Below, piece by piece: positions 2,401-57,564 of a stretch of 64,000 nucleotides of DNA. Numbering within the stretch: position 1 is the stretch's first letter; the number at the start of each line of letters is the position of its first letter. The DNA is from a virus, in IMG/VR virus record IMGVR_UViG_3300027763_000027, positions 107,917-171,916 of that record. One strand, 5' to 3'. Under the pieces are notes generated by a model, which was given only the letters and a program-made list of their open reading frames with translations, was not told the DNA's origin and ran no database searches. The position numbers were made by a program, and so were the translations under genes.

Positions 2401-2583
2401 TTGAAAGATCAAACCACATTAGTTAGCAGAGTAAATAAAGAGCTTCAAGAGCTAGAGAATGATATTACAGCTTTAGTTGAATGGCACGATAACAACTATA
2501 AAGATATTTCTGGAATCAAATGGCAAGAATTAGACGAGGCTCAACTCCTTGTTCAAAAAATTAAAAAATATATAAAAAAATAA
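2401..2583 (+). CDS. Small coiled-coil hypothetical protein, TTG start
   Basis: 60 aa with a TTG start; no in-frame ATG is available near the N-terminus, and AGGAT about 7 bases upstream supports TTG. Heptad-like helical composition (VNKELQELENDITALVEW). Followed directly by a promoter for the next gene. Confidence 0.55.
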   Translation: MKDQTTLVSRVNKELQELENDITALVEWHDNNYKDISGIKWQELDEAQLLVQKIKKYIKK

Positions 2584-2586
2584 TAC

Positions 2587-2615
2587 TTGCTTCTGTATTA
2601 AAATACAAGTATAAG
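2587..2615 (+). promoter_or_regulatory. Class 1 promoter for 2623 gene
   Basis: TTGCTT (2587-2592), 17-nt gap, TATAAG (2610-2615), then 7 nt to the ATG; predicts a nearly leaderless message. Confidence 0.5.
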
Positions 2616-2622
2616 TTTATAT

Positions 2623-2919
2623 ATGGCAACCGCAAAAATTACTAAAACAAGGAAATCAATAAAATCATTTATTGAAATGAATTATAGTGATTATGCAGAC
2701 AAGATTCTTCTTGCAGATGGATTCGATAATTGTCTCATAGGTTTTACGCCTAATGATAAAGGGAATCCAGTAGCAGTTTATGATAAGTGGAAAATGATTA
2801 AACAATTATCTAAAGACTTGAAAAGTGATGATGGTGAAGCTCTTGAGTATTTTGAATTTAATATTGAAGGTGCTTATGTGGGAGAATTTACTCCTAAATA
2901 TTTGGATAAATATGAATAA
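2623..2919 (+). CDS. Phage hypothetical protein with GAYVGE motif
   Basis: 98 aa. The segments CLIGFTPNDKGNPVAVYDKW and EALEYFEFNIEGAYVGE resemble a small protein seen in many tailed phages whose role is unknown. Own promoter directly upstream. Its last codons overlap the start of the next gene. Confidence 0.7.
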   Translation: MATAKITKTRKSIKSFIEMNYSDYADKILLADGFDNCLIGFTPNDKGNPVAVYDKWKMIKQLSKDLKSDDGEALEYFEFNIEGAYVGEFTPKYLDKYE

Positions 2920-3241
2920 AAAAATTAATTGGGTTAATCTAGTTTCTTCTTACGCATTATTTTCTTTTGGTTATAGTGCGGTTATTTATATTATCTGGAA
3001 TTATCTTTTCGCACCAGTTTTTGATAATTTGACTTTATCTTATTTACAAATTATTGGTGCTTATACGATTTGTAGAATTTTATTTGGTAATACTAACACA
3101 AATTATATTAGTAATTTTTATAGTCCACCAACTCCAGACCTAGATAAGATTGATGGCTACTTAAAAGAAATACAAGCAGATTTAGACAAAGAAGCAGACG
3201 AAGTTGAAAGACAATACGAAGATTTAGATAAAAAAGATTAG
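2912..3241 (+). CDS. Small membrane protein with acidic tail
   Basis: 109 aa from ATG 2912, which overlaps the previous stop by 8 bases. Two hydrophobic segments (about residues 8-30 and 38-53) are followed by a Pro-containing linker and an acidic, coiled-coil-like tail (DLDKEADEVERQYEDLDKK). Topology would place the tail in the cytoplasm or periplasm; function unknown. Confidence 0.6.
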   Translation: MNKKINWVNLVSSYALFSFGYSAVIYIIWNYLFAPVFDNLTLSYLQIIGAYTICRILFGNTNTNYISNFYSPPTPDLDKIDGYLKEIQADLDKEADEVERQYEDLDKKD

Positions 3242-8054: not shown

Positions 8055-8477
8055 ATGGATAAAGAATTAGCTTTAATTTGGGAAAATTTAAAACAATTTG
8101 GCTATTTTTCTCCTTATATTTATCTAAAAAGTGCTGGACATAAAGGTTTAGGAGTTTTTGCGAAAACTGATATTCCGCAAGGTGTTATTATAGAATATTG
8201 TCATTCTTTTGTTTTAAATAATGCAATTAAAGATATGCAAGATAATAAATTAAATCAATATATTTATACTTTTCATTCGGGCAAAAGGGGAATTATACCA
8301 ATGGGATTTGGTATGATATATAATAGTGCTGATAGTCAAGAAGAAGCAAATGCAGAATATGTTGCTTTTGATCAAGAAAATCTTGTAATTTATAAAGCTA
8401 AAAAAAATATTGACAAAGATGCTGAAATTCTGTTATGGTGGGGAGAGGATTATTACAACTATTGGTGCAAAAAATAA
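8055..8477 (+). CDS. SET-domain protein
   Basis: 140 aa, about the size of a bare SET domain. Seen: GLGVFA at 31-36 (SAM-site GxG region), IPQGVIIEY at 40-48, a central FGMIYNSAD-EEANAEY region at 85-102 in the position of the family's N-HS motif, and EILLWWGEDYY at 124-134 (usual E-x-x-x-x-YG-Y). SET enzymes methylate lysines. The His of NHS is replaced here, so activity is uncertain. Possible targets are host or phage proteins (inference). Confidence 0.75.
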   Translation: MDKELALIWENLKQFGYFSPYIYLKSAGHKGLGVFAKTDIPQGVIIEYCHSFVLNNAIKDMQDNKLNQYIYTFHSGKRGIIPMGFGMIYNSADSQEEANAEYVAFDQENLVIYKAKKNIDKDAEILLWWGEDYYNYWCKK

Positions 8478-11848: not shown

Positions 11849-12367
11849 ATGAGCAAAACATCTAAATCTAAAAAAATCAAAATGCCAAAGATGACAGACA
11901 TCATGGCACAAATTAAAGCAGAGCAAATCAAAAAAGGAGATAGAGTAAAGTATCATTCTAATCTATTATTTGATACTCTAGCACAAACAAAAGTATCTTC
12001 TATTGAAGTATCTTTTGAAGGTTGCGGAGACTCTGGACAAATCGAATCAGTAGATTATACAGATGCTAATGGCAAGGGCATAGACGAAGCATATCTTGAT
12101 AAGGTTATTGTTAAAGGTTCAGCTAAAACATCCTATCACAAATGGGACGAAAAGACAAAAAAGCTAGTCAAGACAGAAGCCACAGAAGGAAATGTCAGAG
12201 AGATTATCGAAGAGATATGTTATGATAAGTTAGGTGCAAGCCACGGAGGTTGGGAGATTAACGAAGGTAGCTATGGAACATTCTACTTTGATGTCTCTAC
12301 TCGCAAGGTGCGTCTCGAATACAACGAGAGGATAGAGGAGGTTCGGACTAGTGAGGAGAGTTTCTAA
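11849..12367 (+). CDS. DUF6878-like protein
   Basis: 172 aa. The segments FEGCGDSGQIESVDY (57-70) and HGGWEINEGSYGTFYFDV (about 135-152) match what I know of DUF6878, a family of unknown function in phages and bacteria. Basic Lys-rich N-terminus. Overlaps the next gene by one base, and that partner (DUF6915-like) also occurs on mobile DNA. Confidence 0.65.
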   Translation: MSKTSKSKKIKMPKMTDIMAQIKAEQIKKGDRVKYHSNLLFDTLAQTKVSSIEVSFEGCGDSGQIESVDYTDANGKGIDEAYLDKVIVKGSAKTSYHKWDEKTKKLVKTEATEGNVREIIEEICYDKLGASHGGWEINEGSYGTFYFDVSTRKVRLEYNERIEEVRTSEESF

Positions 12368-12717
12368 TGGCTAATCCATACCATCATTCTGTCTCTTCGT
12401 CAAAGAAGTGGGGTGGAACTCCAGAAGATTATCAGAAGATTCACGACTGGTTCGATGAATCAAAGATGATGATGGCAGACTTTAGACATCGTGCTTTGCG
12501 ACATCACGCCGAGGGTATCTTTATGTGTGAGAGGATATTTGGTCACACCATTACTTTAAGTAATGGAAAAAAGATTCCTACTCGTTGGGTTGGCGAACAG
12601 CATGTAGCAGAGGACTTGGGATTTATTCCATCTATGCAAGATTGGCTTAAACATATTATGCCAGAACCTTGGATGGGTAAGACAAAGAAACTTGACATAG
12701 AAAAGCAATTAGTATAA
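12367..12717 (+). CDS. DUF6915-like protein
   Basis: 116 aa. The opening PYHHSVSSSKKWGGTPEDY and the segment DFRHRALRHHAEGIFMCE closely resemble DUF6915, a His-rich family of unknown function. Many conserved His could bind metal. Translationally coupled to the preceding DUF6878-like gene. Confidence 0.7.
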   Translation: MANPYHHSVSSSKKWGGTPEDYQKIHDWFDESKMMMADFRHRALRHHAEGIFMCERIFGHTITLSNGKKIPTRWVGEQHVAEDLGFIPSMQDWLKHIMPEPWMGKTKKLDIEKQLV

Positions 12718-13384: not shown

Positions 13385-13405
13385 TTTGGTGAGGTGGTTT
13401 GGTCA

Positions 13406-13449
13406 TCGGTAGTTGCTTCCGTTAATAGCAAATCGTTTGGGAATACCGA
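13406..13449 (+). ncRNA. Nested hairpin in leader of 13473 gene
   Basis: TCGGTA/TACCGA (13406-13411 with 13444-13449) encloses TTGCT/AGCAA (13413-13417 with 13427-13431). It sits between the peptidase stop and the next gene and could be a terminator-like or leader structure. Covariation is needed to judge it. Confidence 0.35.
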
Positions 13450-13458
13450 ATAATTCTC

Positions 13459-13466
13459 GTGTAATA
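13459..13466 (+). promoter_or_regulatory. Class 2 GTGTAATA motif before 13473 gene
   Basis: GTGTAATA, exactly 6 nt before the ATG, with no TTGAC box upstream. Confidence 0.45.
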
Positions 13467-13472
13467 ACTATT

Positions 13473-13769
13473 ATGAATGATTTTAATATTTTAAACGAGA
13501 TAAATGAATGTTTGATAATAGCAAACCAATTTCAGTTTGGACATAATACTTTTTCTAGAAATGTTAGATCTTATCTTTTGTACAAAAAAATAAGTTCTTT
13601 ATATAGAAAAGTAGATAATTTTGAACTAGCAACTTATTATAGTTCACAAGCGGAAACTGCATTATCTCTAATAGAAGATGGTGAATACAAAAACAAGCTA
13701 GCTCAAGTTGTATCAGACGATTTTCCTCCTTCATTATTTTTAAAAGAAGTAACTAATTCTACTGAATAA
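13473..13769 (+). CDS. Helical hypothetical protein
   Basis: 98 aa from ATG 13473; an in-frame TTG at 13413 would run through the hairpin and is not chosen. TPR-like helical content (RNVRSYLLYKKISSLYRKV). Function unknown. Confidence 0.55.
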   Translation: MNDFNILNEINECLIIANQFQFGHNTFSRNVRSYLLYKKISSLYRKVDNFELATYYSSQAETALSLIEDGEYKNKLAQVVSDDFPPSLFLKEVTNSTE

Positions 13770-13815
13770 ATTTTTTTGTTCTACTATTTGTTGTATTTGT
13801 GTTATAATAGATAGT

Positions 13816-13950
13816 ATGAGTAAAAAAGAAATGGAGAAAAATCTTAATTATGGTGATTGCAATAATATTTTCTGTTTTTTCAGTGATGTTCTTGAGAGCG
13901 CACTTCAGAGTGTAGAAAAAAGTATTGACCTAATCGTAAAAAAAGATTAA
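13816..13950 (+). CDS. Small hypothetical protein upstream of structured RNA
   Basis: 44 aa, MSKKEMEKNLNYGDCNNIFC. TATAAT ends 7 nt before the ATG, so it also appears leaderless, though the -35 is poor. It is followed 10 bases later by a multi-hairpin RNA and may be co-transcribed with it. Confidence 0.5.
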   Translation: MSKKEMEKNLNYGDCNNIFCFFSDVLESALQSVEKSIDLIVKKD

Positions 13951-13960
13951 AATATAAACA

Positions 13961-14122
13961 GTAGAAGGCACACTCTCATTTGCGAGAGGGTGCAAAGAAA
14001 GAGAGCGAGGCGCCCTATATTTCTTTCGTTCCTTCTACGTTGATTTCCGCACAGAAATCAAGGATTGGCTGTTGAGGTGATTGCGGGATTAACCTCAACC
14101 ATATATCCCTTGAGCGTTTTTT
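13961..14122 (+). ncRNA. Multi-hairpin structured RNA with terminator-like end
   Basis: GTAGAAGG/CCTTCTAC (13961-13968 with 14031-14038) closes a junction holding CACTCTC/GAGAG-GTG (13971-13977 with 13984-13992) and AAAGAAA/TTTCTTT (13994-14000 with 14020-14026). Then come TTGATTTC/GAAATCAA (14040-14047 with 14054-14061) and GTTGAGGT/ACCTCAAC (14071-14078 with 14092-14099), the latter extended by GGAT/ATCC and followed by T6. Five helices of 7-8 bp in 160 non-coding bases are far beyond chance. I do not recognise the RNA family. Confidence 0.6.
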
Positions 14123-14147
14123 GGTGTCGCAGAAACCATTTATTTTC

Positions 14148-14155
14148 GTGTAATT
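14148..14155 (+). promoter_or_regulatory. Class 2 GTGTAATT motif before 14162 gene
   Basis: GTGTAATT, 6 nt before the ATG, the same spacing as at 13459. Confidence 0.4.
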
Positions 14156-14161
14156 TGAGAT

Positions 14162-14362
14162 ATGAAATACAAACAATTAAAAGAATACTTGAATACCCTA
14201 ACTGAAGAACAATTAAACCAAGATGTGGTGGTTGTAGAAAAAACAGATTATGCTCCTTTAGTTTCTTATATAGATTCAGCTTTTGTGGTAGAAGATGGAG
14301 ATACTTTATCTTACGAAAATCTTTTAAATAAAGTAGTATTGTACGTTCCTAGATTGAATTAA
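14162..14362 (+). CDS. Small acidic hypothetical protein
   Basis: 66 aa, MKYKQLKEYLNTLTEEQLNQ then a beta-rich acidic part. This opening resembles small phage proteins of unknown role. It follows the structured RNA and could be regulated by it. Confidence 0.6.
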   Translation: MKYKQLKEYLNTLTEEQLNQDVVVVEKTDYAPLVSYIDSAFVVEDGDTLSYENLLNKVVLYVPRLN

Positions 14363-14395
14363 TCATGTATATTATGAGTTATTTATAAATAATCA

Positions 14396-14423
14396 TTGAC
14401 TAAATAATAATTTAAGTTATATT
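14396..14423 (+). promoter_or_regulatory. Class 1 leaderless promoter for 14430 gene
   Basis: TTGACT (14396-14401), 16-nt gap, TATATT (14418-14423), 6 nt to ATG. The spacer is nearly the same as in the 14908 promoter. Confidence 0.7.
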
Positions 14424-14429
14424 TGGTAG

Positions 14430-14681
14430 ATGACCACATATAAATACATAGCAGACTATATAAATAAACCTACTATATTTTGTTATATTGTAGATTGTGT
14501 GATAAATAACAATCCTTATTTGTTTGGTGGCGAGTATAATAAAAAATTACTAAACAAGAAAGTATGGATGGCTAAACAAGTATTTCCTCATTGTGAACCA
14601 ACTCAATATACTTATTTCAAAACATTCAAAGAAGCAAAAGATACATTAAATAGATGGGGCGCAAAGTGGGAAAGGGTTTGA
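14430..14681 (+). CDS. Small hypothetical protein
   Basis: 83 aa, Tyr/Asn-rich, ends FKEAKDTLNRWGAKWERV, an amphipathic helix. Transcribed from its own leaderless promoter. Unknown role. Confidence 0.6.
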   Translation: MTTYKYIADYINKPTIFCYIVDCVINNNPYLFGGEYNKKLLNKKVWMAKQVFPHCEPTQYTYFKTFKEAKDTLNRWGAKWERV

Positions 14682-14907: not shown

Positions 14908-14935
14908 TTGACTAAATAATAATTTAGATTATATT
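14908..14935 (+). promoter_or_regulatory. Class 1 leaderless promoter for 14942 gene
   Basis: TTGACT (14908-14913), 16-nt gap, TATATT (14930-14935), 6 nt to ATG. Confidence 0.7.
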
Positions 14936-14941
14936 CTATTT

Positions 14942-22779: not shown

Positions 22780-23619
22780 ATGAAAGTAAATGAAATCATC
22801 ACCGAAAAATTCATCGAAGCCCTCAACAAAGGTGTCATCCCTTGGCAGAAACCTTGGAAAGTTTTTGATCTCTGCAATGGAGTTTCAAAAAAGAATTATA
22901 GGGGGATTAATCAATTTTTGCTACGGATGCTCGCTTCTGATGATTTCTTTTTTACATTCAATCAGATTAAGGAGCTAGGTGGGAGAATCAAAAAGGGTGC
23001 AAAGTCTCACATGGTAGTTTATTACAAATTGCTCAAAACTGAAAGCAACAATGAAACCAAAACTTTTCCAATGATGAGATTCTATAAAGTTTTTGGGTTG
23101 AGTGATATTGAGGGCATGAAGTGGAAACAGCCCGAAGTTAAGAAGTTGGATTTTTCACCAGTAGAAGAAGCAGAAAAGTTGATCAACAAGTGCATCATTC
23201 AGATTAAACATGGTGGCAGTCGTGCCTGTTATTATCCGCAGGAGCATAAAATTGATCTTCCTCCAAAAGAAAACTTCACCAGCGTTGAGGAGTATTATTC
23301 CACAGCGTTCCATGAGATTGGTCACGCTATGCACAAGGCTACAAGCGATGAAGTGAAGAATGGATTTGGTTCACAGAATTATAGCAAAGAAGAATTGACA
23401 GCAGAAATTTTTGCGAGTCTCTGCCTTAACTTCTGCGGAATTGATTCAGAAAAATGTTTCAACAATTCTGCGAGCTATCTTTCGAGCTGGCTTCAAGTAT
23501 TAAAGAAAGACATGAACTTTATTATTTCAGCTTCTAGCAAAGCACAAAAAAGATTTGACGCTTTTATTGGTAGAAAAGAAAGCGAAGAGATTCCACAAGA
23601 AGAAGCTGTAACTGCTTAA
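22780..23619 (+). CDS. ArdC-like anti-restriction protein
   Basis: 279 aa, typical ArdC length. The N-terminal part (EIITEKFIEALNKGVIPWQK, NYRGINQFLL, FFTFNQIKELGG) matches the ssDNA-binding ArdC N-terminal domain; the C-terminal part carries HEIGH at 178-182 plus a downstream Glu in KEELTAEIFAS, a zinc metallopeptidase site. ArdC proteins protect incoming DNA from host restriction. Its repeat-flanked position fits a mobile defence-evasion cassette. GC is higher than in the left arm. Confidence 0.85.
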   Translation: MKVNEIITEKFIEALNKGVIPWQKPWKVFDLCNGVSKKNYRGINQFLLRMLASDDFFFTFNQIKELGGRIKKGAKSHMVVYYKLLKTESNNETKTFPMMRFYKVFGLSDIEGMKWKQPEVKKLDFSPVEEAEKLINKCIIQIKHGGSRACYYPQEHKIDLPPKENFTSVEEYYSTAFHEIGHAMHKATSDEVKNGFGSQNYSKEELTAEIFASLCLNFCGIDSEKCFNNSASYLSSWLQVLKKDMNFIISASSKAQKRFDAFIGRKESEEIPQEEAVTA

Positions 23620-45455: not shown

Positions 45456-46841
45456 ATGGCTACGATTTATAATATCAATTATACAAAAGGCGACACTCTA
45501 AATATCCCTTTAATAGCTAAATATAACTCTGGCGATATTATTGATTTATCTTCATATTCCTTAAGAGGATCTGTTAAGTATAGATATTCTTCTACTAGTT
45601 CTATATTAGATTTTAATATTATCATAACAAATGCAGAGCAAGGATTTTTTACTTTATATGGAGCAGCACAAGATTCTTCAAATTTTCCAATAGTAGAAGC
45701 TTTATATGACATAGAACTTTTTAATGAAAATGATATTTTTGTAACTAAAATATATCAAGGTAAATTTAATATATTTCCAGAGGTAACATCTAGTACACTT
45801 ACTCCAATTGAAGGAGGAGGTAGTGGAAGCGGAACGCTTGCACCAACAGTTGCACCAACAGTAGCTCCAACAGTAGCTCCAACAGCACCGCCAACAACTG
45901 CTCCAACAGTAGCTCCAACAGCACCGCCAACAACTGCTCCAACAGTAGCTCCAACAGCACCGCCAACAACTGCTCCAACAGTAGCTCCAACAGCACCGCC
46001 AACAACTGCACCAACAGTTGGACCAACAACTGCTCCAACAACTGCTCCAACAGTTGGACCAACAACTGCTCCAACAACTGCTCCAACAGTTGGACCAACA
46101 ACTGCTCCAACAACTGCTCCAACAGTTGGACCAACAACTGCTCCAACAACTGCTCCAACAGTTGGACCAACAACTGCTCCAACAACTGCTCCAACAGTTG
46201 GACCAACAACTGCTCCAACAACTGCTCCAACAGTTGGACCAACAACTGCTCCAACAACTGCTCCAACAGTTGGACCAACAACTGCTCCAACAGTAGCTCC
46301 AACAGCACCGCCAACAACTGCACCAACAGTTGCACCAACAACTGCTCCAACAGTAGCTCCAACAGCACCGCCAACAACTGCTCCAACAGTAGCTCCAACA
46401 GCACCGCCAACAACTGCTCCAACAACTGCTCCAACAATTGCACCAACAACTGCTCCAACAGTATCTACTTATAAAATATTTTATGGTACAGTATCTGGTC
46501 CATCAACTAACGTACCACTTTTAAATGATTCTCAAATTAATTCTTTACAAAACTCTGTAATATCTCCTGATTTAATAGGAAATTATCAAGGAATTTATAA
46601 CTGCCCAGCATTAGCAAATGGTTATAAATACATCTGCTATCCAGAAATTTTACCAACAATTTCTACAAGTATAGATTACGACAGTACTTCTCCATCTCCA
46701 TTTGATGCAGTTGTATTTAATGATTTTAATGGCTTGAATTATTATATTGTAAGTGTAACCGTAAATAGTATTCTAGTCAATTATAGGGTATATAGAACCG
46801 CTAGTAGATCAAATAATTTGCTCAGAATACAAGTAACATAA
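45456..46841 (+). CDS. Virion adhesin with long Pro/Thr linker
   Basis: 461 aa in three parts. Residues 1-120 resemble the BppU-type N-terminal baseplate domain (YTKGDTLNIPLIAKYNSGDI). Residues about 128-330 are an uninterrupted Ala-Pro-Thr tract of VAPT, APPT, TAPT and VGPT units. Residues 335-461 form a beta-rich end domain. It probably projects a receptor-binding tip from the baseplate; the linker Thr could be glycosylated (inference). Confidence 0.65.
   Translation: MATIYNINYTKGDTLNIPLIAKYNSGDIIDLSSYSLRGSVKYRYSSTSSILDFNIIITNAEQGFFTLYGAAQDSSNFPIVEALYDIELFNENDIFVTKIYQGKFNIFPEVTSSTLTPIEGGGSGSGTLAPTVAPTVAPTVAPTAPPTTAPTVAPTAPPTTAPTVAPTAPPTTAPTVAPTAPPTTAPTVGPTTAPTTAPTVGPTTAPTTAPTVGPTTAPTTAPTVGPTTAPTTAPTVGPTTAPTTAPTVGPTTAPTTAPTVGPTTAPTTAPTVGPTTAPTVAPTAPPTTAPTVAPTTAPTVAPTAPPTTAPTVAPTAPPTTAPTTAPTIAPTTAPTVSTYKIFYGTVSGPSTNVPLLNDSQINSLQNSVISPDLIGNYQGIYNCPALANGYKYICYPEILPTISTSIDYDSTSPSPFDAVVFNDFNGLNYYIVSVTVNSILVNYRVYRTASRSNNLLRIQVT
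45838..46470. repeat. Ala-Pro-Thr coding repeat array
   Basis: About 630 bp of near-identical 12-, 15- and 30-bp units such as CCAACAACTGCTCCAACAGT. Eight or so consecutive copies of the GGACCAACAACTGCT unit are almost perfect, which suggests recent expansion by slippage or recombination. Confidence 0.9.
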
Positions 46842-53169: not shown

Positions 53170-56100
53170 ATGAGCAATCAAATATTTTATATCTCAGGAA
53201 ACAAAAAATTTTATATAAATGAAAATTCTGGAGTTTTAGTTTTAAATAATTTAAATTTAGATTCTCCAATAGTTTTTAATAATAATCTTTTTCACTCATC
53301 TCAAGCAAGTGGATATCTTACTGGAGTAGGGTATACTGGAAATTATGATGGCGGGTATTTCTTAGGTAAAAGAAAAATATCTCAAAATACAATTAGATTA
53401 ATAGATAGTAGTTTTGGTAGCACTTGGGTCTCCAAAGAGAGTAGTAGGCAATGGACTAGTATATCAATCAGTAGCGATGGCAAATATCAAAGCGCAGTTG
53501 TTTTTCCTGGACAAATTTACGTTTCCTCAGACCATGGAAATACTTGGGTCGCTAAAGAGAGCAGTAGGCAATGGATTAGTATTTCAATCAGTAGCGATGG
53601 CAAATATCAAAGCGCGGTTAGTCTTTCTGAACAAATTTACGTTTCATCAGACTATGGAAACACTTGGGTCGCTAAAGAGAGTAGTAGGCAATGGAGTAGT
53701 ATTTCAATCAGTAGCGATGGCAAATATCAAAGCGCAGTTGTTGGTAATGGACAAATTTACGTTTCATCAGACTATGGAAACACTTGGGTCGCTAAAGATA
53801 GCGCCAGAGGTTGGCGCAATATTTCAATCAGTAGCGATGGCAAATATCAAAGCGCGGTTAGTTTTTCTGAACAAATTTACGTTTCATCAGACTATGGAAA
53901 CACTTGGGTCGCTAAAGAGAGCAGTAGGCAATGGAGTAGTATTTCAATCAGTAGCGATGGCAAATATCAAACTGCTGTAGCAAACAACGAGTTCGTTTAC
54001 ATTTCCTCAGACTATGGAAACACTTGGGTTGCTAAAGGGAGTAGTAGAAGATGGAGTAGTATTTCAATCAGTAGCGATGGCAAATATCAGAGCGCTGTTG
54101 TTGGTAATGGACAAATTTACGTTTCATCAGACTATGGAAACACTTGGGTTGCTAAAGGGAGTAGTAGGCAATGGAGTAGTATTTCAATCAGTAGCGATGG
54201 CAAATATCAAAGCGCAGTTAGTTTTCCTGGACAAATTGACGTTTCTAAAACAGATGAATTAATAGATGGAAATCTTTATGCTAACAACTTAGTTTATAAT
54301 ACTGGCAATCAATTTATTAGTGGAACTAAAATTTTTACTAATCCCATATATTTTACTAGTGGAGATAATTATCCATACCCAGAAGATATTTACAATGGAG
54401 ATGGTCTTGGAAAAGCTGGTGGAAGCATAGATCTTCGTGGAGGTGATGGAGGAGGAGATGGATGGGCAGGATTTGGTGGATCGATTTCTTTAAGAGGATC
54501 AGATGGAAACGATGGCCAAGGAGGAAATGGAGGATCAATTTCTATGAATGGAGCCCAGCACGATGGTTATGCTGGAAGTATAAATACAGATGGTGGATAT
54601 GACCGTCCTGGAGGATCTATAAATACTTCAAATGGTGGTGGATCTATAGATTTAAGAGGTGGAGCTAGGTTAGATTCTATAGGAGGAGATGGGGGGAGTA
54701 TATCCTTAAGAGGAGCTGATGGAAATGATTTTAATGGAGCTGGTCATGGTGGATCTATTACGGCTGATGGAACTGCTGGTGGCGGAGGAGGTAATGGACC
54801 AGCAAACGGTGGTTCATTAAATATGTCTGCTGGAGATTATATTGGAGCACATGGTGGCTCTATTAATACTTCTATTATAGGTGGGTCAATTATTACAAAA
54901 GGTTTTATCAACCATGATACTCCAAATTATACTTTATATTCTGGTGGTTCAATTAATACATCAGCATCAAATAGTTTTTCTGGTGGCTCAATTGATCTTT
55001 CAAGTAATGGTGGAGCAAATTTTTCAATAAAATCAGCAAATCTTCCAAATGAAGCGGATGGTTCAATTTATAACAAAATAAATGATAGATTTTATATTCG
55101 CAAAAGTGGAGTTTGGGAAGAAGTAATAACAAATAATGGCAATCAAACTATAAGTGGAGTTAAAACTTTTGCTTCTCGCCCAACTGTAAATGGTACTGGA
55201 GTTTTATTAAGTGGAGATATTCCGTATGTTCAAACCAATTCATATTTCTATGTTGATGCCACTAGAACAGATTCATATATTGAAAATGGAAATATTTTAT
55301 ATCCATATAAAACTTTAAGTAGCGCTTACAATGCAGCAAAAAATATTGCATCTTTTAATAACCCAACTTATATAACGCTTCTTAGTCCAATAGCTGAAAA
55401 TTTAACTATAGATAAAGGATATATTAATTTAGTAGGAAATAATACAAATAAAAATGATCCAATTAGAATAACTGGCTCATTAGTTTTTGCAGCTACTGGT
55501 ATTGGTTCAACTATAACAGATAATAATTTTTCAATAGCTGGGTTAGGAGTAACGGCCACTTCAAATAATAAATGTATATTATTTTCTGGAAATCACCCTC
55601 AAAGATTGTTTATTCAAGATTGTTGGTTGATAGCAAAAGATAATGGAACTTGTTTATATTCAAATAATACAAATACAACTTCAAGATTGCAAGGAGATAT
55701 ATTAAAACTTAGTCCAGAAGGAGTAAATACAACAGCAATTGATATAGTAAGTGGAACATCTTCGATTTCTTTTGCTGAGACTAGTAGTTCTGCAAGTGTT
55801 TTAGCTTACGTTAGAAATAATAGTACTTTAAATATAAGTAACTCTCAAATAGAAACAGCTGGAGTAAAAGCTTTTCAAGTTGAAAACGCTGCTAGATTAA
55901 CTTTATTAAATAGCGTGCTAACAAATACAGCGAATACTTCGACTGGAATATTTTTAACAAATGCAGGTTCTACAGCAGTAGTAGTTGGTTCAGCAATTTC
56001 TGTTCCAGCAAACGCTAATAGTTATGCTATAAATGGAGTAGCTAATTCTTATCTTTTTTATAAAAATCTTTATTTTAGTATAAATGCTGTTGGCCAAAGC

Positions 56101-57564
56101 ACAGAATCAAAAATTGGAAATAATATTAATAAAAATTTAATTAATTCATATGATCCAGTAGTTTATAGTATAGGTAATCAAACTATTAGTGGGATTAAAT
56201 CTTTTATATCAGGAAATTTTGATGATTTAACTTTAAATAATACATTAGGTGAGGCTAAAATAAAATTTGGAAGAGATGATTGGTATTTAGCATGTAATGG
56301 TGGAGATCCTATTTATTATCTTAATGGACCTAGTCTAATTACATTAGATGCATATAATGGAGGCATTGGCTTAAACGGTCTATTTCTTTCTTTTAACCAA
56401 TATAATCTTGCTACATATTTCGGTGATAAGGGCGAATATGTAGACTTCGGATTGAAAGATAAATCCATAAAATTTTGGGATTATAATTCTAGTCTAGATC
56501 AAGTAGAACCTAATACACAATACAATTTTAAATCTGGAGTTAGTGGCTCTATTCCAGTTGACAGTGAAGTTGTTCATAAAACTGGAGATGAAACTATTTC
56601 TGGAATTAAAACTTTTGCTTCTCCAATATATTTTATTAGTGGAGAGGTTGGTGGTGGCTCAATTACGATGTTTGGAAATCTAGGAGAATACGGATTGTAT
56701 CCTTCTATTGCTGGTTCAATCGATTTAAGTGCAGGAGTAGGTGGCGATGGTGGAAGCATTAACTTGCGAGGTTCACAAGACGCCGATGAAGGTAATAAGT
56801 CATCTGGAGGAAGTATAGACTTAAGCGCAGGAGCTGCAGATGGAAGTCCTGGTGGCTCAATAATATCTATAGGTGGTGCAGGAGGTAGTCCAGGTGGAAC
56901 TTTAAATATGTCAGGGGGCGAGATCGGCGGGGGCGGTTCAATAACTACTTCTAATGAGGGGGGCTCAATAACTACTTCTAATGAGGGGGGCTCAATCAAT
57001 ACCTCAAATGGTGGTGGCAGTATCAATACGGAAGCTGGTGGCGCAATCAACACCTCAAATGGTGGCGCAATCAACACCTCAAGTGCTGGTGGCAGTATCA
57101 GCACCGCAAATGGTGGTGGCAGTATCAATACGGAAGGCCGCGGTTTTATTGAGCTTGGGTCAGGCGATACAAGAACTACTCTGAATGGTAGAGCACTTTA
57201 TACTTCCAACTTTCCACCAGATCATATCGACGGAATAGTGCAGGGGCCGCAGACGATCAATCTTCCCGATACCAGTGGGACTTTGCCCATTGCTTTGATT
57301 AGTGCATCTACGGCACTTAATTTTGGAAGTATTAACGGTAACGGTGCTTTTGCTGATTTAACCATAACACTTGCTGGGGCGGTCACTACTGATGTAGTTT
57401 TTGTTACTTGTTTGAATGGACGAGGAGCTACGGATGGACAACTTATCTTTGAAGCGTTTGTATCCGCTACGGACACGGTTACTGTTAGAGCGCATAATCC
57501 GCATAATAATGCAATCAACCCAGCATCCTATAATTTTAGAGTGGGGATTATCAGAATCTCATGA
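53170..57564 (+). CDS. Giant adhesin with Asp-box propeller and Gly repeats
   Basis: 1464 aa. Residues about 95-360 are seven near-identical 40-aa units with SSDYGNTW Asp-box motifs, i.e. a seven-bladed propeller. Gly/Ser-rich repeats (GGSINTSNGGGSI, SIDLRGG) at about 410-630 and 1170-1330 look like stacked beta-solenoids. Between them lies a KTF-RP-VNGTG unit and a beta-helix (about 690-960). The C-terminal domain (TCLNGRGATDGQLIFEAFVS) is beta-rich. In frame after its TGA another 49 sense codons follow. Confidence 0.7.
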   Translation: MSNQIFYISGNKKFYINENSGVLVLNNLNLDSPIVFNNNLFHSSQASGYLTGVGYTGNYDGGYFLGKRKISQNTIRLIDSSFGSTWVSKESSRQWTSISISSDGKYQSAVVFPGQIYVSSDHGNTWVAKESSRQWISISISSDGKYQSAVSLSEQIYVSSDYGNTWVAKESSRQWSSISISSDGKYQSAVVGNGQIYVSSDYGNTWVAKDSARGWRNISISSDGKYQSAVSFSEQIYVSSDYGNTWVAKESSRQWSSISISSDGKYQTAVANNEFVYISSDYGNTWVAKGSSRRWSSISISSDGKYQSAVVGNGQIYVSSDYGNTWVAKGSSRQWSSISISSDGKYQSAVSFPGQIDVSKTDELIDGNLYANNLVYNTGNQFISGTKIFTNPIYFTSGDNYPYPEDIYNGDGLGKAGGSIDLRGGDGGGDGWAGFGGSISLRGSDGNDGQGGNGGSISMNGAQHDGYAGSINTDGGYDRPGGSINTSNGGGSIDLRGGARLDSIGGDGGSISLRGADGNDFNGAGHGGSITADGTAGGGGGNGPANGGSLNMSAGDYIGAHGGSINTSIIGGSIITKGFINHDTPNYTLYSGGSINTSASNSFSGGSIDLSSNGGANFSIKSANLPNEADGSIYNKINDRFYIRKSGVWEEVITNNGNQTISGVKTFASRPTVNGTGVLLSGDIPYVQTNSYFYVDATRTDSYIENGNILYPYKTLSSAYNAAKNIASFNNPTYITLLSPIAENLTIDKGYINLVGNNTNKNDPIRITGSLVFAATGIGSTITDNNFSIAGLGVTATSNNKCILFSGNHPQRLFIQDCWLIAKDNGTCLYSNNTNTTSRLQGDILKLSPEGVNTTAIDIVSGTSSISFAETSSSASVLAYVRNNSTLNISNSQIETAGVKAFQVENAARLTLLNSVLTNTANTSTGIFLTNAGSTAVVVGSAISVPANANSYAINGVANSYLFYKNLYFSINAVGQSTESKIGNNINKNLINSYDPVVYSIGNQTISGIKSFISGNFDDLTLNNTLGEAKIKFGRDDWYLACNGGDPIYYLNGPSLITLDAYNGGIGLNGLFLSFNQYNLATYFGDKGEYVDFGLKDKSIKFWDYNSSLDQVEPNTQYNFKSGVSGSIPVDSEVVHKTGDETISGIKTFASPIYFISGEVGGGSITMFGNLGEYGLYPSIAGSIDLSAGVGGDGGSINLRGSQDADEGNKSSGGSIDLSAGAADGSPGGSIISIGGAGGSPGGTLNMSGGEIGGGGSITTSNEGGSITTSNEGGSINTSNGGGSINTEAGGAINTSNGGAINTSSAGGSISTANGGGSINTEGRGFIELGSGDTRTTLNGRALYTSNFPPDHIDGIVQGPQTINLPDTSGTLPIALISASTALNFGSINGNGAFADLTITLAGAVTTDVVFVTCLNGRGATDGQLIFEAFVSATDTVTVRAHNPHNNAINPASYNFRVGIIRIS
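53452..54255. repeat. Seven tandem 120-bp propeller-blade repeats
   Basis: Seven units of 40 codons, each W-ISISSDGKYQ...SSDYGNTWVAK. At DNA level most blocks are identical (for example ATTTCAATCAGTAGCGATGG recurs), which points to recent duplication or gene conversion. Confidence 0.9.

What the first reader, a model, noticed from the sequence alone, without database searches (positions are those of the whole stretch)
13961..14122. Five-helix non-coding RNA with a terminator-like 3' hairpin
Helices of 7-8 bp close at 13961/14038, 13971/13992, 13994/14026, 14040/14061 and 14071/14099. The last can be extended as CAAGGAT/ATCCCTTG before T6, but CAA is also the 3' end of the preceding hairpin, so the two may be mutually exclusive. 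That is the logic of a riboswitch or attenuator upstream of 14162, or of a small RNA after the 44-aa gene.
Basis: partly seen in the sequence, partly recalled or inferred. Interest (0 to 1): 0.65.

Follow-up and report, generated by a model that had tools for sequence, protein, structure and literature searches.

The report
New structured RNA family in phages
An uncultured phage carries a small RNA gene with its own promoter and an evolutionarily conserved fold (a three-way junction plus a pseudoknot); matching copies occur in at least a dozen other phage contigs but in no entry of Rfam, so it looks like a new phage RNA family whose job is still unknown, and not the riboswitch or terminator first suspected.

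Summary
All five helices are in the sequence, and the region folds better than all but 3 of 200 shuffles. Comparison with other phage contigs changes the reading. The RNA is encoded just behind a sigma70-type promoter (TTGACC-17-TAAAAT, 13925-13953) that keeps its position in the relatives examined. Its 5' half is a three-way junction: 14 of 22 pairs show two-sided changes over 14 sequences, 0/500 shuffles. Its 3' half is a stem, P4-P5 (6 of 13 pairs), plus a probable pseudoknot between 14045-14051 and 14082-14088. The T6 run lies inside an almost invariant 3' block that continues to 14138, so it is not the RNA's 3' end. Downstream genes differ between phages (66-aa gene, tRNA-Asp, other genes), so a riboswitch or attenuator for 14162 is not supported; an independent small RNA is. 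The RNA sits beside a conserved ~44-aa micropeptide gene and a second covarying pseudoknot element (13401-13461) in every record that shows the region. A long form (~370 nt) and a minimal junction-only form (~88 nt) exist. There is no Rfam match. Function and host are unknown.

The parts
13925..13953 (+). sigma70-type promoter TTGACC-17-TAAAAT driving the RNA; relatives have TTGAC-17-TAATAT at the same place; its -10 box overlaps the stop codon of the 44-aa ORF
   Evidence: same arrangement in 9 loci and by eye in L159 and L167
13961..14038 (+). 5' domain: three-way junction. P1 13961-13967/14032-14038, P2 13968-13977/13984-13993, P3 13997-14004/14020-14027; invariant UGC in the P2 loop, near-invariant GUUCC at J3/1
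   Evidence: A10, 14 sequences: 14 of 22 pairs changed on both sides, 44 such cells, 0/500 shuffles; L159, L167, L209, L210, L223 were not used to build the model
14045..14051 (+). pseudoknot strand a, UUCCGCA
   Evidence: pairs with 14082-14088 in all 12 sequences, 6-7 bp; one compensatory change C-G to U-A
14059..14112 (+). P4: C-A-A-G-G-A-U 14059-14065 with A105 U106 / C108 C109 U110 U111 G112 (C107 bulged), plus U66-A101, G67-C100
   Evidence: A11: 3 pairs of this helix changed on both sides, including A-U to G-C in L167, which no RNA pattern had selected
14071..14099 (+). P5 hairpin, variable stem; its loop carries the GCG core of pseudoknot strand b
   Evidence: 3 of its 4 modelled pairs changed on both sides
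14082..14088 (+). pseudoknot strand b, UGCGGGA, in the P5 loop
14113..14138 (+). nearly invariant 3' block AGCGUUUUUUGGUGUCGCNGAAACCA (T6 = 14117-14122); UGGU/ACCA can form a weak terminal hairpin, 6 bp in L104
14139..14146 (+). T-rich tract after which similarity between loci ends; probable 3' end of the RNA
   Evidence: T-rich run after ACCA in the relatives; downstream DNA unrelated. Inference, not mapped
13816..13950 (+). 44-aa micropeptide ORF MSKKEMEKNLNYGDC..., conserved (39-50 aa) beside the RNA
   Evidence: all 12 contigs found with it carry the RNA, including L167, found this way first
13401..13461 (+). second covarying RNA element (E1), pseudoknotted: 13407-13410/13445-13448, hairpin 13413-13417/13427-13431, helix 13439-13444/13453-13458
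   Evidence: once in each of 10 RNA-positive records, in none of 40 other phage records searched
12367..12717 (+). DUF6915 gene, the conserved upstream neighbour of the module

Best explanation
A phage-encoded, independently transcribed, structured non-coding RNA of about 180 nt that acts in trans. RNA polymerase with a housekeeping-type sigma factor starts near 13960. The RNA folds into a 5' three-way junction and a 3' pseudoknotted stem, followed by an almost invariant tail (AGCGUUUUUUGGUGUCGCNGAAACCA) and a T-rich end. Supported by sequence and comparison: conserved promoter, conserved fold on the + strand, single copy, variable downstream genes, linkage to a micropeptide gene and to element E1. 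Inferred: that the junction is a folding and stability module, that the invariant tail and loops are the contact surface for a partner (protein, ribosome or RNA), and that the partner is host or phage expression machinery. It is not a cis-acting riboswitch for 14162.
For: Promoter at constant spacing in the loci examined. Covariation far above shuffles and slid registers in both domains. G-U pairs on the + strand would be A.C on the other, so the RNA is on +. Independent tests: R1 found the junction in L098's record at 72.9 bits and in L167 at 75.3 bits, a contig found through the micropeptide; also in L209/L210/L223 at 30-38 bits. Downstream neighbours differ. In L241 the minimal form is followed by T8 and not by the small gene that follows it in L209/L210/L223.
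Against: No expression data, and the 5' and 3' ends are not mapped. No terminator lies between the micropeptide ORF and the RNA, so it may also be made as a 3' UTR. In L209, L210 and L223 the minimal form lies about 9 bases before an ORF (MTCFICKRK... type), so a leader role there is not excluded. No partner is known, and no antisense match above chance was found in the window.
Confidence: 0.75

Rival explanations
1. Riboswitch or transcription attenuator for the 66-aa gene at 14162, in which helix 4 and the CAAGGAT/ATCCCTTG-T6 hairpin are alternative states.
For: In the window the two helices share CAA and a T6 follows. UUCCGC can pair locally or with the P5 loop, so a conformational switch is formally possible.
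Against: Helix 4 is absent in L104, L106, L167 and the long forms; the T6 is followed by 16 conserved bases; downstream genes are unrelated; the records of the closest relatives of the 66-aa gene show no credible RNA match.
Confidence: 0.05
2. 3' UTR element of the micropeptide mRNA: a stabilising or 3'-end structure with no function of its own.
For: The micropeptide ORF ends inside the RNA promoter with no terminator between. The two always occur together in the records examined.
Against: A promoter-like sequence of conserved spacing lies between them. The minimal form occurs in L209/L210/L223 directly behind its own promoter, and no relative of the micropeptide was noticed there (checked by eye only). 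The invariant tail and pseudoknot are more than a 3' UTR needs.
Confidence: 0.12
3. An RNA that self-assembles into oligomers or cages like GOLLD or ROOL.
For: Phage RNA in a tRNA-bearing region, as described for GOLLD and ROOL (PMC12286853). The P3 tip of the window type carries the self-complementary GGCGCC.
Against: Much smaller (88-370 nt) and no Rfam match. Palindromes in the P3 tip are not commoner than in shuffled tips (14-77% of shuffles as good, except a 12-nt palindrome in L209/L210 that may simply be a hairpin).
Confidence: 0.08

Closest known systems
GOLLD and ROOL RNAs (PMC12286853)
   Same: Non-coding RNAs of phages, often near tRNA islands, with elaborate folds and no known function; [quoted passage not shown]
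   Different: About 180 nt here against more than 600-800 nt; unrelated sequence and fold by Rfam search; linked to a micropeptide gene; here the 5' junction is the most widespread part.
Base-pairing phage sRNAs such as VpdS, PreS, c4 RNA, OOP RNA (reviewed in PMC12197685)
   Same: Small, phage-encoded transcripts.
   Different: The conserved body is mostly a compact fold with covariation; no antisense match above chance to the window's genes; Hfq binding unknown.
Own-promoter lncRNA of Staphylococcus phage K near tRNA genes (PMC9241854)
   Same: Intergenic phage RNA with its own promoter near tRNAs.
   Different: lnc001 is a 635-nt interval (13595-14229) and lnc002 about 1.15 kb, in an unrelated phage; sequences not compared here.

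Membership tests
Any Rfam 15 family | Score at or above a family's gathering threshold | tested here: not met
   Window and 9 relatives: only tRNAs at gathering; permissive scans gave chance hits only
Riboswitch / attenuator | Conserved aptamer in the 5' UTR of a consistent gene or pathway | tested here: not met
   Downstream genes differ, including a tRNA
Riboswitch / attenuator | Conserved mutually exclusive terminator and anti-terminator | tested here: not met
   Helix 4 not conserved; T6 inside the conserved body
Intrinsic terminator at 14122 | Stable hairpin followed at once by a T-run, RNA ending there | tested here: not met
   Consensus scan finds no + strand terminator in 13700-14450; conservation runs 16 bases past T6
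GOLLD / ROOL | Sequence/structure match to the Rfam models, over 600 nt | tested here: not met
GOLLD / ROOL | Homo-oligomeric assembly | not testable with these tools
   needs biophysics
phi29-type packaging RNA | Match to a known RNA model | tested here: not met
   No Rfam match; the RNA lies about 22.6 kb from the terminase gene, whose best match is the ordinary terminase large subunit family phrog_2
phi29-type packaging RNA | Packaging motor that depends on the RNA | not testable with these tools
   needs a packaging assay
Stand-alone phage small RNA gene | Own promoter, no long ORF, conserved secondary structure | tested here: met
   (promoter by sequence only)
Hfq-dependent base-pairing sRNA | Hfq binding and seed pairing with mRNA | not testable with these tools
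   Host unknown; U-rich segment present; no antisense signal in the window

The most novel reading that the evidence does not exclude
The three-way junction is the core of a new, modular class of phage RNA: used alone (~88 nt) in one phage lineage and fused to a pseudoknot 3' domain, with or without a ~170-nt middle insertion, in another, and working there as an RNA-micropeptide module (with element E1 as processing or 3'-end signal) that takes over part of the host's expression machinery.
Probability: 0.25. Interest if true: 0.8.

Novelty: new variant of a known kind. Interest (0 to 1): 0.6.

Why it matters
Few structured phage RNAs are understood, and most were found in isolates. This one comes with a covariance-supported fold, a precise promoter, a minimal natural form, a linked conserved micropeptide and a second linked RNA element, so deletion, probing and pull-down experiments are directly specified. 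If the RNA and micropeptide act together it would be an unusual phage RNA-peptide module.

Tried and rejected
Rfam at gathering and permissive thresholds: nothing but tRNAs. blastn against INPHARED phages with the window region and with the long form: no related RNA, only chance matches or none; a mis-oriented query hit tRNA-Asp genes. Exact 3'-block pattern in GTDB genomes: none; junction model in 198 Flavobacteriales genomes: none, by strict filters, with no positive control in that set. Host: the single bacterial contig with a related terminase is a Flavobacteriales MAG contig, too weak to name a host, and the TTGACA/TATAAT-like promoters do not look like Bacteroidota ones (own knowledge). 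Relaxed pattern GATTGG..CCATATATCC added only chance hits. P3-tip palindrome/dimer idea: not significant. Antisense to window genes: not above chance. Alternative pairing of the tail UCGC with the P5 loop GCG: possible, but without two-sided changes. RNA on the minus strand: it folds well too, but G-U pairs and the promoter favour +.

Full report
WHAT WAS CLAIMED. A five-helix non-coding RNA at 13961-14122 (+) with a terminator-like 3' hairpin, perhaps a riboswitch or attenuator upstream of 14162 or a small RNA after the 44-aa gene.

CHECK OF THE OBSERVATION. The window is part of a 172-kb IMG/VR phage record, and the element occurs there once. All five helices are in the sequence. The + strand folds at -58.2 kcal/mol against -44.4 +/- 4.3 for dinucleotide shuffles, with 3 of 200 shuffles as good. 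The minus strand also folds well, so strand is decided by other evidence below. Rfam 15 gives no match beyond tRNAs.

RELATIVES. The 614-aa terminase gave 318 related viral loci, of which 80 were fetched. Searching whole records with the RNA's DNA showed a 40-nt conserved 3' block in three of them; pattern scans with that block found more. Scanning with the micropeptide alignment returned 12 contigs, including one new one, L167; the other 11 were already known to carry the RNA, and L167 carries it too. Scanning with the neighbouring DUF6915 protein returned 58 loci: of the 14 closest (86-97% identity), the 13 whose downstream DNA is held carry the RNA; L186 is cut off just after the gene. Loci at 82% identity or less do not carry it downstream of the gene (L211, 90%, is also cut off). 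Three distant loci, L209, L210 and L223, carry the 5' junction alone, on the opposite strand (36.8, 38.2 and 30.5 bits), and a pattern scan added L241. No hit was found in GTDB genomes with the exact 3' block, in 198 Flavobacteriales genomes with the junction model, or in isolate phages by blastn.

THREE FORMS. Short form (window, L091, L098/L159, L099, L104, L106, L167): junction, linker, pseudoknotted stem, tail, about 180 nt. Long form (L090, L094, L097, L101; L095 is truncated): the same junction and the same 3' domain, with roughly 170 nt more in between. Minimal form (L209, L210, L223, L241): junction only, then a T-rich run. L167 combines a short-form 3' domain with a long-form P3 tip, which suggests exchange of modules.

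STRUCTURE. In the junction alignment A10 (14 sequences) 95.7% of cells pair, 14 of 22 pairs have changes on both sides and 44 cells do; no shuffle of 500 reached the percentage paired, the number of pairs, the number of cells or the covariation score, and slid registers fall to 40-58% paired. The count of further pair types alone is not unusual. A10 is fitted to the model's structure and so leans towards it; MAFFT alignments made without the structure gave the same result. In the 3' domain (A11, 12 sequences) 99.4% of cells pair and 6 of 13 pairs change on both sides (MAFFT version). L167, which was not selected by any RNA pattern, changes A8-U51 to G8-C51. G-U pairs at several positions would be A.C on the other strand, which places the RNA on +. 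A further pairing between the linker (UUYCGCA, 14045-14051) and the P5 loop (UGCGRRA, 14082-14088) is 6-7 bp in all 12 sequences. It is supported by one compensatory change (C-G to U-A in the L104/L106/L167 clade) and wobble changes; single-sequence shuffles reach it in 0.3-7.6% of cases. I call it probable, not proven.

The fourth helix (14040/14061) is missing in L104, L106, L167 and the long forms, whereas its rival CAAGGAT/ATCCCTTG (P4, with C107 bulged) is conserved with compensatory changes. The T6 at 14117-14122 lies inside an almost invariant block, AGCGUUUUUUGGUGUCGCNGAAACCA (UUUGUU in L104/L106/L167), and similarity ends only after the T-rich tract at about 14139-14146. The consensus scan finds no + strand terminator here.

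TRANSCRIPTION UNIT. TTGACC-17-TAAAAT (13925-13953) precedes P1 by 7 nt. The nine loci listed, plus L159 and L167, have TTGAC and a TAATAT-like box at the same place. L209/L210/L223 also have a TTGAC-type promoter there. The promoter overlaps the end of the 44-aa ORF. Promoter assignment rests on sequence only.

CONTEXT. Upstream in the window: DUF6915 gene, a C39-type peptidase gene, element E1, a 118-aa ORF, then the 44-aa ORF. E1 is a second covarying element with a pseudoknot (6 of 15 pairs changed on both sides; its P1 varies only G-C/G-U), found once in each of 10 RNA-positive records and in none of 40 other phage records. Downstream the genes differ: the 66-aa gene in the window, tRNA-Asp in L159, a different small gene in L104/L106/L167, others in L091, L099 and L097. 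This is the main argument against a cis-regulatory role for 14162. In addition, the records holding the closest relatives of the 66-aa gene (L002, L003) have no junction match, and at most chance-level scores for the 3' domain.

MECHANISM. Shown by sequence and comparison: conserved fold, conserved promoter-like sequence, single copy, linkage to a micropeptide and to E1. Inferred: transcription by sigma70-type polymerase, action in trans, and the invariant tail and loops as contact surface for a conserved partner. The micropeptide may be that partner or may only share the locus.

LIMITS. All relatives are metagenomic and most are fragments, so absence in a record is weak evidence. Sequences in the alignments are related, and shuffles do not correct for that; the slid-register controls do. 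Host unknown. No expression data.

NOVELTY. A new RNA family by Rfam 15, of the broad kind 'phage-encoded structured non-coding RNA'. I did not find it in the papers searched, but these cover open-access text only.

Noticed in passing
window 13401-13461: Second covarying structured element (E1): hairpin plus pseudoknotted helix, often followed by a T-rich run; in long-form phages (L084, L094, L101) it lies directly before a tRNA gene (tRNA-Asn). No Rfam match.
   Followed up: partly
window 13816-13950: Micropeptide MSKKEMEKNLNYGDC... conserved in 39-50 aa versions; conserved N-terminal half, variable C-terminal half; no Pfam or PHROG match.
   Followed up: partly
L209, L210, L223 (minus strand, near 2550-3130); L241: Minimal junction-only RNA followed by a T-rich run; in L209/L210/L223 it lies about 9 bases before a cysteine-containing small ORF (MTCFICKRK... 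or MKCFVCNRK...), which L241 lacks at that place.
   Followed up: partly
L090, L094, L097, L101: Long form with about 170 nt inserted between the junction and the 3' domain; the insert has its own conserved stretches (e.g. ACTAACCGAATCA) and may be a further structured domain.
   Followed up: no
window 14396-14423 and 14908-14940: Near-identical TTGACTAAATAATAATTTAR.TTATATT promoter-like sequences before two small genes (14430 and 14942).
   Followed up: no
window 8055-8477: 140-aa protein with a SET domain (PF00856, E 4.9e-8), a protein methyltransferase-type fold in a phage.
   Followed up: no
window 22780-23619: ArdC-like protein: ArdcN plus MPTase-PolyVal domains, anti-restriction type.
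   Followed up: no
window 45456-46841 and 53170-57564: Long repetitive structural-type proteins: (APTTAPTV)n repeats and repeated KESSRQW.SISISSDGKYQSAV units.
   Followed up: no
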